A stretch of 64,000 bases of DNA from Homalodisca vitripennis (Eukaryota > Arthropoda > Insecta > Hemiptera > Cicadellidae), in the NCBI RefSeq assembly GCF_021130785.1, contig NW_025777958.1, positions 62,001-126,000 of the forward strand, given 5' to 3'. Positions within the stretch are counted from its first letter, which is position 1, and the number at the start of each line of letters is the position of its first letter. Under the pieces are notes generated by a model. It had not been told where the DNA came from and made no database searches. It saw only the letters and a list, made by a program, of their open reading frames with translations. The translations under genes and the position numbers were made by a program. Shown here piece after piece: positions 36,726-55,437 of the stretch.

Positions 36726-36901
36726 AGTAGATAGTAATATGGGGTTCCTGGCGCACTTTCGGAGCCGACCGAAAAGCAATGTAAAATACTGTTCAATATA
36801 CCATAAAGGAAGCTGAGAAATAACACAGCAAATCTCAATGAAAAATTAACCGAATCTACAGTCGTTCGTCTCCAAAAGCGATCGGTACATTACTATCTAC
36901 T
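36726..36901. repeat. Terminal hairpin-like unit of the left TIR
   Basis: The terminal 13-mer AGTAGATAGTAAT (36726-36738) has an exact inverted copy ATTACTATCTACT at 36889-36901. Next to it, AATGAAAAATTAACC is present twice in direct orientation (about 36834 and 36909). The unit is mirrored at the right end (55262-55274 with 55425-55437). It may form a terminal hairpin or be a binding site set for integrase or terminal protein. Confidence 0.7.
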
Positions 36902-37098
36902 CTGTGGAATGAAAAATTAACCAAATCTATAGCTGTTTGCTTCTACTTTCTTAAGCTGTGCTTTGTAAAATGTTGTCAAATCTGCTACGAATAAAGGAAA
37001 AATCTTCGAAATCTTAATAAAATTTAATCAATTTAAAACATTTTTACTAAAAACATACTTTAATAAAAAACTTTTCTACTAAATAGTCACCAAACAAC

Positions 37099-37638
37099 AT
37101 GAACTCACCAAAGTCTCTACAATTTCTAGCATTAAAACAGTGCAACAAAGATGAATTCAGTGAATTGCCGGTTTATTCTCAACAACAGTTGATACCGTCT
37201 TTAAATGAAACAGAATTAAAAGAACTTGTAGAGTCTTTTGCAGAAAGAACGAAAACTGCACACGTGTACACACAAAAAACGAAAAAAATAAGGGATTACA
37301 TATTTAATATAATTACGAAAGATATTGAAAAGAAAGTAAAAAATAAACAAACAGAGAGTTTTCATCGTTTTTTTATGACATTTTTCCCATATTATACGTC
37401 CTTTCAAGATAATCAAGACTTAATTGATGAATTTCTTAGGAATTTTTGTGAGTATCAAGATTTATCAACACAATTCATTAAAGAGCATTATAGAATTTTT
37501 CTTATAGAATATAGCCACATTTTGTGTGAAACAAAAGGTATTACTGTAGATAATATTCCATGTGATTCCTATGAAGAAAGACACCAACTATGGTTATCAA
37601 AACAGTACTATGACGTGGGGAGGGACTGCAAGTTTTAG
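37099..37638 (+). CDS. TIR-encoded protein, unknown function (YQ-LS-FI motif)
   Basis: 179 codons starting at an ATG. No family recognised with certainty. Residues about 130-145 read CEYQDLSTQFIKEHYR, matching the YQ-x-LS-x2-FI motif repeated in the 132-residue protein at 41246-41644, a pattern frequent in short repeat proteins of large DNA viruses. The N-terminal part (SLQFLALKQ ... ELPVYSQQQLIPSL) has a Leu-Pro start that could suggest an F-box-like helix set, but this is weak. The TCTA-type start motif is absent upstream. The paralogous copy in the right TIR (54519-55072) is broken and divergent over the first 60 codons. The gene is convergent with 37649-37954, 10 bp away. Confidence 0.7.
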   Translation: MNSPKSLQFLALKQCNKDEFSELPVYSQQQLIPSLNETELKELVESFAERTKTAHVYTQKTKKIRDYIFNIITKDIEKKVKNKQTESFHRFFMTFFPYYTSFQDNQDLIDEFLRNFCEYQDLSTQFIKEHYRIFLIEYSHILCETKGITVDNIPCDSYEERHQLWLSKQYYDVGRDCKF

Positions 37639-37648
37639 AGTTAAGACT

Positions 37649-37954
37649 TTATTCTACAAAGTTAATTGTTATAATTTCTTTATCTTTTATAGTCTTCTTT
37701 CCAGTAACAATCAAGTGTAATTTTTCATTTTTGTTTAATTCTTTAATCTTTTTTTCATCCAAAACAGTCAAAAATCTGTTCGGCAAGTGTACTTTACAAT
37801 CTTCCAACTCGGCAATTATTGTAAACCCGAATTTATCTTTCATTTTCTCCAAATTCAAGATTCTATGTTTCTTCCTTTCTTCCAATTCATTTAACTTCTT
37901 ATACTCTTTAAACTTACATTCTCCAATATCATTTAACTCTTTCAAGAACTCCAT
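37649..37954 (-). CDS. TIR-encoded 101-residue protein, possible OB-fold
   Basis: This intact gene is duplicated in the right TIR (54203-54508), with only two residues different near position 30. It starts at an ATG in TTTTTTCTATTTAAATGG. The first 35 residues are a charged helix (FKEYKKLNELEERKK). The rest alternates short strands: FGFTIIAELEDCKVHLP, NRFLTVLD, EKLHLIVTGKK, ITINFVE. The strand-rich half followed by a basic segment resembles small nucleic-acid-binding folds, and similar proteins sit in other insect Polintons, but OB-fold is a guess. Near-perfect conservation of both copies shows recent origin or gene conversion. Confidence 0.75.
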   Translation of the reverse strand: MEFLKELNDIGECKFKEYKKLNELEERKKHRILNLEKMKDKFGFTIIAELEDCKVHLPNRFLTVLDEKKIKELNKNEKLHLIVTGKKTIKDKEIITINFVE

Positions 37955-37973
37955 TTAAATAGAAAAAATTTAA
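37955..37973 (-). promoter_or_regulatory. Start-proximal TCTA/TAAATG motif
   Basis: Minus strand reads AAATTTTTTCTATTTAAATG into the 101-codon gene. Confidence 0.65.
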
Positions 37974-38478
37974 AGACGGAAAAAATGAAATTCGCTAACC
38001 TTCACTCGAGAAGTCGGGGAGAATGTGAGTAAAACCGCATTCTTTTCAAGAGGTTCTTCGTTTAATTTCTCCAAATGTACTATAAAATCATCGAGGATTT
38101 CTGGTTCAAAATCGTAAACAAATTCAACATCCAGATAATGAAAAAATACAGGTAATATCTTTTCATAATAAACGTGTGTATCGATACCTACAAACCTAAT
38201 GTATTCTTTGAAAAGGAAAATAATTTTGTCAATGGTTCCAAGAGATAAGTAAAAATTTTTATTCTGTTTTCTAAATTCTGTAACAAATTTTGTTTGCTTC
38301 TTGTCTCCATATTGCAATTTTGTAAGCAGGTTATTCAAATGTGTTAATTTATTTCGAAATTTCTTAGGTTTAGGTCTTTCTAACAAAATTAAATTACAAC
38401 CTCTACAAACTAAATATCTTTTATCGATAATTTTCCTCTATTAGAACACTTGTAACAGTTGGCATTATACTCTTCCAT
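37970..38478 (-). pseudogene. Zinc-binding N-terminus plus unknown domain, frameshifted
   Basis: An ATG at 38476-38478 follows the TTTAAATGG motif and encodes MEEYNANCYKCSNRGKL, with a first CxxC. The frame then stops. In another frame the sequence continues YLVCRGCNLI (second CxxC) into a 138-codon open frame, RPKPKKFRNKL onward. So a single small indel near 38420 splits a protein that began with a CxxC...CxxC zinc ribbon. The C-terminal part is acidic and aromatic (DTHVYYEKILPVFFHYLDVE) with no recognised family. An upstream start inside the second frame would lack a zinc knuckle, so I favour a broken gene. Confidence 0.65.
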
Positions 38479-38502
38479 TTAAACAAAAAGATTTTTTTAT
38501 AA
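38479..38502. promoter_or_regulatory. 24-bp bidirectional start region
   Basis: Two genes diverge from this AT-only-like spacer. The minus strand reads TTTTTGTTTAAATGG and the plus strand ATTTTTTTATAAATGG, so both ATGs carry the element-wide TAAATG-type motif. Confidence 0.6.
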
Positions 38503-53540: not shown

Positions 53541-54180
53541 TTAACTAAATGGTGCTTGTAAAACCAACGATTGCGCCTCTCACGGCGTGATATCACTACG
53601 GATATGACGCAGGCGAAGCGATTATCGTGATGGTCGGTCTGTAGTAGCACACCTCGACTGTCATTGATACACACAGCGCAATCTTTCGGAACTAAAATGT
53701 CGGTAATGCAGATTTGCTTTTAAGAATAAAAATTGTGTTCCCGTTTACTATTATAACATTTTCTTTTTCAAAATGTTAGATAATTTTACCTATTTTAAAT
53801 ATGCGTACATTTTGTTACTTGTAATTTTCAAATTATATTTTAAATTAATTTCTTAAATTTTTACTTCTCGATGGGCTGTTGTATTGTGTTGCTGAGTATA
53901 TATGTCCGCGAATTCGGTTTGGTCGGTTAGGAAGTTTACTTCTGAACTGTTTCAATGCGAGTGGCCATAGCGGAGAAACACCAAGTTCAGAAGTATTCAG
54001 ATCGTATTCCGGAACCATTTCTCTATCCGTATCTCGCTCTTCTCTCTCTCTCTAGCCTGAATATAGATCCTAGCCTATAAACGGCAGAAGTGATCGTGTC
54101 ATAGGCATAAAAAGAGAGGGAGAGAGAAAGAGACAGAGGGAGGAGAAAAGGTCGACCGAGAAATGGTTTTGCACTTTTTG
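53541..54180. other. Spacer between pPolB and right TIR
   Basis: No gene. 53560-53700 is GC-richer and unlike the rest of the element, perhaps a further insertion. Near 54013-54168 an imperfect inverted repeat is visible: AACCATTTCTC (54013-54023) with GAGAAATGGTT (54158-54168), enclosing a pyrimidine run TCTTCTCTCTCTCTCT (about 54038-54053) and a purine run (about 54106-54149). Confidence 0.5.
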
Positions 54181-54183
54181 ACT

Positions 54184-54202
54184 TTGAATTTTTTCTATTT
54201 AA
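54184..54202 (+). promoter_or_regulatory. Start-proximal motif of right TIR gene
   Basis: Plus strand: AATTTTTTCTATTTAAATGG. Confidence 0.65.
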
Positions 54203-54508
54203 ATGGAGTTCTTGAAAGAGTTAAATGATATTGGAGAATGTAAGTTTAAAGAGTATAAGAAGTTAAATGAATTGGAAGAAAGGAAGAAATACAAAATTTT
54301 GAATTTGGAGAAAATGAAAGATAAATTCGGGTTTACAATAATTGCCGAGTTGGAAGATTGTAAAGTACACTTGCCGAACAGATTTTTGACTGTTTTGGAT
54401 GAAAAAAAGATTAAAGAATTAAACAAAAATGAAAAATTACACTTGATTGTTACTGGAAAGAAGACTATAAAAGATAAAGAAATTATAACAATTAACTTTG
54501 TAGAATAA
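54203..54508 (+). CDS. TIR-encoded 101-residue protein, right copy
   Basis: Same length as 37649-37954 and the same protein except Tyr-Lys for His-Arg at about residues 30-31. Intact. Function unknown; see the left copy for its features. The intactness of both copies suggests selection or recent conversion. Confidence 0.75.
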   Translation: MEFLKELNDIGECKFKEYKKLNELEERKKYKILNLEKMKDKFGFTIIAELEDCKVHLPNRFLTVLDEKKIKELNKNEKLHLIVTGKKTIKDKEIITINFVE

Positions 54509-54518
54509 AGTCTTAACT

Positions 54519-55072
54519 CTAAAACTTGCAGTCCCTCCCCACGTCATAGTACTGTTTTGATAACCATAGTTGGTGTCTTTCTTCATAGGAATCACATGGA
54601 ATATTATCTACAGTAATACCTTTTGTTTCACACAAAATGTGGCTATATTCTATAAGAAAAATTCTATAATGCTCTTTAATGAATTGTGTTGATAAATCTT
54701 GATACTCACAAAAATTCCTAAGAAATTCATCAATTAAGTCTTGATTATCTTGAAAGAACGTATAATATGGGAAAAATGTCATAAAAAAACGATGAAAACT
54801 CTCTGTTTGTATATTTTTTACTTTCTTTTCAATATCTTTCGTAATTATATTAAATATGTAATCCCTTACTTTTTTAGTTTTTTGCCGATAGTAAAACACT
54901 CCATTAGACGTTTTTTTCTGCAAAAGACTTTACAAGTTCTTTGAATTCTGTATCATTTAAGGAAAGTATCAACTGTTCTTTAAAATGTTTTGGTAATTCG
55001 TTGAACTCGTTAAAATTGTCTTTCTTTGTAAGTTTTTGAAATGCTAGAAACTGAAGAGAGCTTGGTGAGTTT
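54519..55072 (-). pseudogene. Right-TIR copy of the 179-codon gene, broken
   Basis: The last 120 codons are almost identical to the left copy. The first 60 codons are very different (about one base in five by eye, plus insertions that lengthen it). The start codon is ATA instead of ATG (55070-55072), and an A-run indel near 54910-54925 shifts the frame after VKSFAEK. The left copy is open, so only one functional gene could remain. Confidence 0.75.
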
Positions 55073-55261
55073 ATGTTGTTTATTTAGTAGAAAAGTTTTT
55101 TTATTAAAGTACAGTATGTTTTTAGTAAAAATGTTTTAAATTGATTAAATTTTATTAAGATTTTTCCTTTATTCGTAGCAGATTTGACAACATTTTACAA
55201 AGCACAGCTTAAGAAAGTAGAAGCAAACAGCTGTAGATTTGGTTAATTTTTCATTCCACAG

Positions 55262-55437
55262 AGTAGATAGTAATGTACCGATCGCTTTTGGAGACGAACG
55301 ACTGTAGATTCGGTTAATTTTTCATTGAGATTTGCTGTGTTATTTCTCAGCTTCCTTTATGGTACATTGAACAGTATTTTACATTGCTTTTCGGTCGGCT
55401 CCGAAAGTGCGCCAGGAACCCCATATTACTATCTACT
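55262..55437. repeat. Terminal hairpin-like unit of the right TIR
   Basis: AGTAGATAGTAAT at 55262-55274 pairs with ATTACTATCTACT at 55425-55437, as at the left end. Confidence 0.7.

What the first reader, a model, noticed from the sequence alone, without database searches (positions are those of the whole stretch)
36726..55437. Nearly complete endogenous Polinton/adintovirus with all six hallmark virus genes
pPolB, integrase, ATPase, protease, MCP and penton all lie between 1.25-kb TIRs, together with BRO, PLA2, fibre-like and zinc proteins. Direct motif evidence exists for each. Few disabling changes, and mostly near-identical TIRs, suggest a young insertion from a lineage that may still form virions.
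Basis: partly seen in the sequence, partly recalled or inferred. Interest (0 to 1): 0.9.

Follow-up and report, generated by a model that had tools for sequence, protein, structure and literature searches.

The report
Broken sharpshooter Polinton with virus-type promoters
A leafhopper chromosome carries a nearly whole but broken copy of a Polinton, a virus that lives as a jumping gene, and many of its genes begin with the same short DNA signal that resembles the late-gene switch of poxviruses, which hints at how such elements might be turned on.

Summary
The element is real: 36726-55437 (18,712 bp), about 1.25-kb TIRs, in a (TA)n tract, so a TATATA target duplication is possible but unprovable. 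Four of six hallmark genes are firm: DJR MCP (Pfam 1.8e-29), A32-type ATPase, rve integrase, and a penton whose model best matches mavirus penton (Foldseek 2.9e-8; TM only 0.42). pPolB (motifs by eye) and the adenain-like protease (sub-threshold) are weaker. The nearest MCP is from a sharpshooter (Cuerna arida, 87%); another ORF matches Homalodisca vitripennis proteins.

Corrections: pPolB, protease and two zinc genes are each split by a frame change, the fibre-like gene may carry an in-frame stop, and the TIRs are mosaic (99% identity around a ~240-bp patch at 76%). This copy is unlikely to be autonomous.

New: 8 of 13 independently defined gene starts have TAA directly before ATGG (4.8% of flank ATGs have TAA before ATG); 5 of the 8 read CTATHTAAATGG behind a T-rich tract. 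This resembles the vaccinia late promoter (T-rich, TAAATG) and contains mavirus's TCTA. My searches found no report of it in Polintons, but the original adintovirus paper was not held. Conservation in relatives is untested. Virus-type, perhaps helper-dependent, transcription is the testable reading.

The parts
36726..37971 (+). left TIR, AGTAGATAG end; holds the 179-aa and 101-aa ORFs
54186..55437 (-). right TIR, 99% identical to the left except a ~240-bp patch at 76%; its 179-aa ORF is interrupted; inner edge approximate
37099..37638 (+). TIR-encoded 179-aa protein, no family; shares a YQ.LS..FI stretch with ORF 41246-41644
   Evidence: E 2e-4 for a single comparison
37649..37954 (-). TIR-encoded 101-aa protein (second copy 54203-54508 +)
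37970..38478 (-). zinc-ribbon protein gene split by a frame change; part of its 3' half is 94-98% identical to two Homalodisca vitripennis proteins
38503..38676 (+). 57-aa frame starting with TAAATGG, divergent from 38478 (24 nt between start codons); no family known, doubtful gene
38750..39930 (.). non-coding block with a tRNA-like (SINE-like) stretch, probably nested host repeat; boundaries approximate
   Evidence: tRNA-like only at relaxed score
39931..41124 (-). major capsid protein, double jelly roll, 397 aa
   Evidence: PF21738 1.8e-29; 38 homologues
41246..41644 (-). 132-aa ORF, unknown
41673..41816 (-). 47-aa zinc protein, DUF5679
   Evidence: PF18930 1.5e-9; start pointed out by the motif
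41831..42586 (-). fibre-like coiled-coil protein, in frame with 42587-42868 across one TGA
42587..42868 (-). 93-aa ORF, possibly the N-terminal part of the fibre-like gene
42846..43713 (-). adenain-like protease with N-terminal extension, split by a frame change near 43.6 kb
   Evidence: sub-threshold only
43722..45029 (-). protein with C-terminal PLA2-like domain
   Evidence: PF08398 6.3e-10
45046..45308 (.). intergenic tandem repeat (13 or 40 bp period) between PLA2 and ATPase genes
45387..46064 (-). A32-type packaging ATPase
   Evidence: PF04665 4.3e-9
46105..46839 (+). penton protein
   Evidence: AF2 pLDDT 88.5; mavirus penton 6g42 E 2.9e-8, TM 0.42
47026..47835 (+). BRO protein
   Evidence: PF02498 1.4e-27, PF12299 2.6e-15
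47822..48157 (-). 111-aa cysteine-rich (zinc) protein
   Evidence: no Pfam family
48191..48575 (-). paralogous zinc protein gene split by a frame change
48590..49600 (-). rve integrase
   Evidence: PF00665 4.2e-10
49601..53522 (-). DNA polymerase B, Polinton type, in two frames (50217-53522 and 49601-50251); motif C in the downstream piece
   Evidence: motifs by eye; no family hit; phrog_2633 0.0052
37952..37963 (-). TCTATTTAAATG start motif of the TIR101 gene; TAAATGG also at the start codons 38478, 41124, 41816, 43713, 45029, 46064, 48157, 48575, 49600, 53522 (-) and 47026, 54203 (+)

Best explanation
This is a degraded germline copy of a Polinton/adintovirus lineage of sharpshooter leafhoppers. 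Shown: a TIR-bounded element with integrase, DJR MCP, penton and packaging ATPase, and weaker protease and pPolB; several genes frame-broken. Inferred from the known family: the integrase inserts linear DNA, pPolB copies it from the TIR ends, and ATPase, protease, MCP and penton build an icosahedral particle; the PLA2-like domain may serve membrane escape. Shown in sequence, function inferred: many genes share one compact signal overlapping the start codon (T-rich tract, then CTATHTAAATGG or a variant), so I read the gene switches as virus-type start-site promoters rather than ordinary upstream Pol II promoters. This copy most likely can no longer replicate or mature particles by itself; other copies or relatives would have to supply those functions.
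For: Ends and TIRs. Families. Penton fold. Sharpshooter relatives. Broken frames. Motif: TAA directly before ATG in 9 of 19 element ORFs of >=80 aa against 0 of 8 in the flanks (Fisher 0.02), and 13 of 48 against 3 of 86 at >=40 aa (1.1e-4). 8 of 12 at the flank ATG rate of 4.8% (79 of 1642) gives 1.2e-8. [TC]TA[ATC].TAAATGG: 11 in the 18.7-kb element, 1 in the other 45.3 kb. A matrix from 14 ORF starts ranks 48575, 54203, 43713 and 41816 as the top four of 624 other element ATGs; 54203 is the TIR copy of a training member, the other three head independently plausible genes. ATPase and penton start codons are only 40 nt apart.
Against: pPolB and protease lack above-threshold family hits. Of the 13 gene starts, penton, TIR179, o132, o93 and the fibre-like ORF lack TAA before ATG; only 5 of 14 left-out training starts score above 8, and 2 of 1642 flank ATGs also do. 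The loose pattern TATTTAAATG with up to one mismatch is not enriched over the whole window: 42 against 35.2 expected, reached by 15 of 100 shuffles. TAA is also an in-frame stop, which a first-ATG-after-stop ORF list slightly favours. No DNA of a relative could be fetched, so conservation is untested. No transcript 5' end was seen.
Confidence: 0.85

Rival explanations
1. Helper-dependent animal virophage: the start-site motif is read by the transcription apparatus of a co-infecting large DNA virus of the insect (entomopoxvirus-like or mimivirid-like), as mavirus genes are thought to be read by CroV, and the integrated element is woken by that virus.
For: T-rich tract plus TAAATGG fits the described vaccinia late promoter: TAAAT usually followed by G over the start codon, conserved T at the 10th base upstream (PMC11980589, passages). 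T is at -13 in 13 of 18 and at -12 in 15 of 18 listed starts (four of the 18 were listed because of the motif and one is a TIR copy). TCTA, the mavirus and CroV late core (PMC8547959, passages), is at -9..-6 in 7 of 18, two of them TIR copies. Nearest penton structure is mavirus. No RNA polymerase family among the Pfam matches shown. Poly(A) signals are not enriched behind genes (2 of 14, expected fraction 0.33).
Against: No helper virus identified. Poly(A) and TTTTTNT counts are not significant (P 0.11 and 0.066). The strict 18-base motif occurs once in each of only 15 IMG/VR records, none with several copies. Convergence in AT-rich DNA is possible.
Confidence: 0.15
2. Host-read promoter: the motif is an initiator or TATA-like signal used by host Pol II, perhaps with an element-encoded zinc protein as factor, giving nearly leaderless mRNAs.
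For: TATATAA, TATTTAA and TATCTAA look TATA-like. Small zinc proteins are encoded. MCP homologues are named in UniRef for two sharpshooters; that these come from transcriptomes is recalled.
Against: A TATA box over the start codon would put the usual start site downstream of ATG (recalled). T at -3 is poor Kozak context (recalled).
Confidence: 0.4
3. TAA before ATG is a translational device (stop-start coupling), not a promoter.
For: The PolB stop and integrase start are contiguous (49601/49600), likewise o93 and the fibre-like ORF.
Against: No listed ORF ends just before the BRO, ATPase, PolB or TIR101 starts; the T-rich tract and TCTA reach beyond a stop codon.
Confidence: 0.08
4. The frame changes are assembly errors and the copy is intact.
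For: Two of four overlap windows hold a 7-base homopolymer.
Against: Two of four hold none; the right-TIR gene is disrupted too and a non-coding block is present.
Confidence: 0.1

Closest known systems
Polintons/Mavericks and adintoviruses (class Polintoviricetes; the taxonomy copy resolves Adintoviridae to Eupolintoviridae with Alphadintovirus and Betadintovirus)
   Same: TIRs with AG end, rve integrase, PolB, ATPase, cysteine protease, DJR MCP, penton (gene set as in PMC11071308, passages)
   Different: TAAATGG start-site motif on many genes, not found reported; genes inside mosaic TIRs; this copy is broken
Mavirus and EMALE virophages
   Same: penton structure; TCTA in promoters (PMC8547959, passages)
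   Different: animal host, no helper known, motif also carries TAAATGG over the start codon
Poxvirus late promoters (vaccinia, entomopoxvirus)
   Same: AT/T-rich stretch, then TAAATG over the start codon (PMC11980589 and PMC3061580, passages)
   Different: resemblance of signal only; no poxvirus transcription gene identified in the element
Drosophila-associated adintoviruses 1-3
   Same: number 1 has PolB, integrase, capsid, protease and FtsK genes (PMC8363768, passages)
   Different: 13.3-14.6 kb against 18.7 kb here; hemipteran host; sequences not compared

Membership tests
Polinton/adintovirus | terminal inverted repeats with AG end | tested here: met
   the (AG)3 or (AGT)2 vertebrate end motifs (PMC8097293, passages) are not matched exactly
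Polinton/adintovirus | 6-bp target site duplication | tested here: inconclusive
   TATATA on both sides but inside (TA)n
Polinton/adintovirus | retrovirus-type integrase | tested here: met
   PF00665 4.2e-10, above cut-off
Polinton/adintovirus | protein-primed DNA polymerase B | tested here: inconclusive
   motifs by eye, no family hit; protein priming not testable; frame broken
Polinton/adintovirus | FtsK/A32-type packaging ATPase | tested here: met
   PF04665 4.3e-9, above cut-off
Polinton/adintovirus | adenain/Ulp1-type cysteine protease | tested here: inconclusive
   sub-threshold matches only; frame broken
Polinton/adintovirus | double jelly-roll MCP | tested here: met
   PF21738 1.8e-29
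Polinton/adintovirus | penton of the mavirus/adenovirus kind | tested here: met
   19 PDB matches at E<=1e-3, six mavirus penton, 13 adenovirus/ADDomer; TM 0.38-0.47
Virophage (mavirus-like) | dependence on a helper giant virus | not testable with these tools
   no infection data
Virophage (mavirus-like) | promoter motif shared with the helper's late genes | tested here: inconclusive
   shared motif on many genes, no helper known
Poxvirus late gene control | late transcription factor genes in the same genome | tested here: not met
   none among the Pfam matches shown for the ORFs scanned

The most novel reading that the evidence does not exclude
Animal Polintons of this lineage are insect virophages: integrated and silent, and switched on through poxvirus-late-type TAAATGG start-site promoters when a large DNA virus infects the leafhopper, whose transcription machinery they borrow.
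Probability: 0.15. Interest if true: 0.92.

Novelty: new variant of a known kind. Interest (0 to 1): 0.6.

Why it matters
The passages seen of PMC10328495 set out a virophage-first scenario in which Mavericks descend from virophages that shared promoters with large DNA viruses. A dedicated viral start-site motif on an animal Polinton would make helper dependence in animals directly testable from RNA 5' ends. It also gives a simple way to find start codons and broken genes in such elements: here it pointed to four starts that the ORF list missed. If the motif is host-read instead, it is still an unusual compact promoter. The element itself, without the motif, is an ordinary defective Polinton.

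Tried and rejected
A poxvirus VLTF3-like factor in the broken zinc-ribbon gene (ORF 37970-38437) came to mind by eye and from memory. Pfam up to E=10 gave nothing, PDB only unrelated sub-threshold hits, the protein search two short Homalodisca fragments, and the single-sequence model has pLDDT 36, so no fold search was made. Not supported.

Relatives for testing motif conservation were sought in IMG/VR by MCP, PolB upstream piece (49), penton (52) and integrase (53), in prokaryote genomes (85) and phage records (89, 90): no relative. The alignment A2 could not be used for a scan (44). The strict motif in IMG/VR gave 15 records with one match each (70). In these, 8 of 110 ORFs of >=100 aa have TAA before ATG (103), against 9 of 15 in the element (93); their viruses were not identified.

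The extra start codons 38478, 41816, 43713 and 48575 were first listed because of the motif, so the figure 13 of 18 is biased. I rely. From its 19 ORFs I dropped six to get 13 gene starts: two antisense (44548, 52747), two right-TIR (54203, 54782) and two internal (43196, 50167). Counting the fibre-like ORF as part of o93 gives 12, the number used. The matrix set was 14 (it kept 50167 and the fibre-like ORF).

Poly(A) and TTTTTNT tests were inconclusive; the 14 gene ends used left out PolB, o93, the broken second zinc gene and the right-TIR copies. No element-like DNA or protein match was found in the flanks. The 118-aa frame over the tandem repeat (45030-45386) was taken as non-coding.
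Full report
Observation. The element runs from 36726 to 55437 (18,712 bp). Both ends read AGTAGATAG inward and are flanked by (TA)n, so TATATA is a possible but unprovable 6-bp target duplication. The TIRs reach about 37971 and 54186. They are 99.4% identical in the outer 334 bp, 76.1% in 37060-37300 and 99.0% in the inner 671 bp. Uniform decay of one duplicated end would not give this pattern. A stretch of one TIR seems to descend from a different relative, by recombination or conversion (inference).

Genes. MCP, ATPase, integrase, BRO and PLA2-like proteins are above Pfam cut-offs, as is a 47-aa DUF5679 protein. The penton had no family. Its alignment of 23 sequences gave a model with pLDDT 88.5, and the PDB search returned 19 matches at E<=1e-3: six mavirus penton chains first, then 13 adenovirus or ADDomer chains. 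TM-scores of 0.38-0.47 and rmsd above 9 A mean that the match is one of fold class, not of close geometry. The protease and pPolB are weaker, as told in the observation check. Pfam gave no DNA polymerase family for the two PolB frames.

State of this copy. Frame changes split pPolB, the protease gene and two zinc genes; one in-frame TGA parts o93 from the fibre-like ORF; the right-TIR 179-aa gene is interrupted. Two of the four frame-overlap windows contain a 7-base homopolymer, so assembly error cannot be excluded for those. No ORF of 70 aa or more lies between 38437 and 39931. This stretch holds a tRNA-like sequence found by ARAGORN only with relaxed scoring, not by default, which suggests a nested SINE-type insertion (inference).

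Host and relatives. Of 38 MCP homologues, the nearest is from Cuerna arida (87%), with a partial one from Graphocephala atropunctata (76%, 60% covered) and a distant one from the plant bug Apolygus lucorum (34%); most of the rest carry no name. The broken zinc-ribbon ORF matches two Homalodisca vitripennis proteins (98% over 27% and 94% over 21% of the query). Both differ from this copy by at least one residue, so other copies or fragments exist. The host is therefore a sharpshooter, perhaps H. vitripennis. The host assembly itself could not be searched: all 12 genome-search runs did not complete.

The start-site motif. Start contexts showed TAA directly before ATGG again and again. Without using the motif to choose starts, 9 of 19 ORFs of >=80 aa in the element have it and 0 of 8 in the flanks; at >=40 aa 13 of 48 and 3 of 86. 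After dropping antisense, right-TIR and internal ORFs, 8 of 13 have it: TIR101, MCP, PLA2, ATPase, BRO, Zn111, integrase and PolB. Five of these eight (TIR101, ATPase, BRO, Zn111, PolB) read CTATHTAAATGG. The pattern [TC]TA[ATC].TAAATGG occurs 11 times in the element, ten of them heading the frames listed, and once elsewhere in the window; CTAT.TAAATGG occurs 8 times against a first-order Markov mean of 0.015, maximum 1 in 200. A position matrix from 14 starts put four further starts first among 624 element ATGs: the second zinc gene, the right-TIR copy, the protease gene and the DUF5679 gene. Against this, only 5 of 14 left-out starts score above 8, 2 of 1642 flank ATGs do as well, and a looser pattern is not enriched across the window.

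Interpretation. The described vaccinia late promoter has TAAAT, usually followed by G over the start codon, with a conserved T at the tenth base upstream and T-rich surroundings (PMC11980589, passages); an entomopoxvirus gene shows TAAATG too (PMC3061580, passages). Mavirus-type EMALEs carry TCTA in AT-rich surroundings, matching CroV late genes, and the authors infer activation by the giant virus (PMC8547959, passages). The element's motif contains both. The ATPase and penton start codons lie 40 nt apart, which leaves little room for ordinary promoters and leaders. I take virus-type start-site promoters as likely. Who reads them, host Pol II or a helper virus, is open; I give 0.4 and 0.15 in the rivals.

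Literature. Full-text searches for Polinton or adintovirus with promoter terms or TAAATG listed no paper that describes such a motif: the only Polinton plus TAAATG hit was an aphid small-RNA paper (listing only). The library is open-licence PMC; the original adintovirus paper was not held, so earlier mention there cannot be excluded.

Verdict. The finding is right about what it is, too generous about its integrity, and missed its most interesting feature. Without that feature I would score it about 0.3; with it 0.6, held back because conservation and transcripts are untested.

Noticed in passing
37060-37300 and about 54857-55110: Mosaic TIRs: a ~240-bp patch covering the start of the 179-aa TIR gene is 76% identical while both sides are 99%, suggesting recombination between related elements.
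   Followed up: partly
39269-39339: tRNA-like sequence on the minus strand inside the element's non-coding block, found by ARAGORN only with relaxed scoring; possible nested SINE.
   Followed up: partly
45046-45308: GC-richer tandem repeat (13-bp unit, about 20 copies) between the PLA2 and ATPase genes.
   Followed up: no
62514-63999: ORF with retrotransposon gag look and a CCHC knuckle by eye, in a GC-rich (47%) end of the window; not searched.
   Followed up: no
32392-32709: Fragment that looks by eye like LINE reverse transcriptase.
   Followed up: no
P0066 and P0067 (Homalodisca vitripennis proteins): Host gene models, one named splicing factor 3A subunit 2, contain a piece of the Polinton zinc-ribbon ORF at 94-98% identity: annotation artefact or captured exon.
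   Followed up: partly
53523-54185: About 660 bp between the PolB start and the right TIR without a listed ORF; a TAAATGG at 53546 heads only a 13-aa frame.
   Followed up: partly
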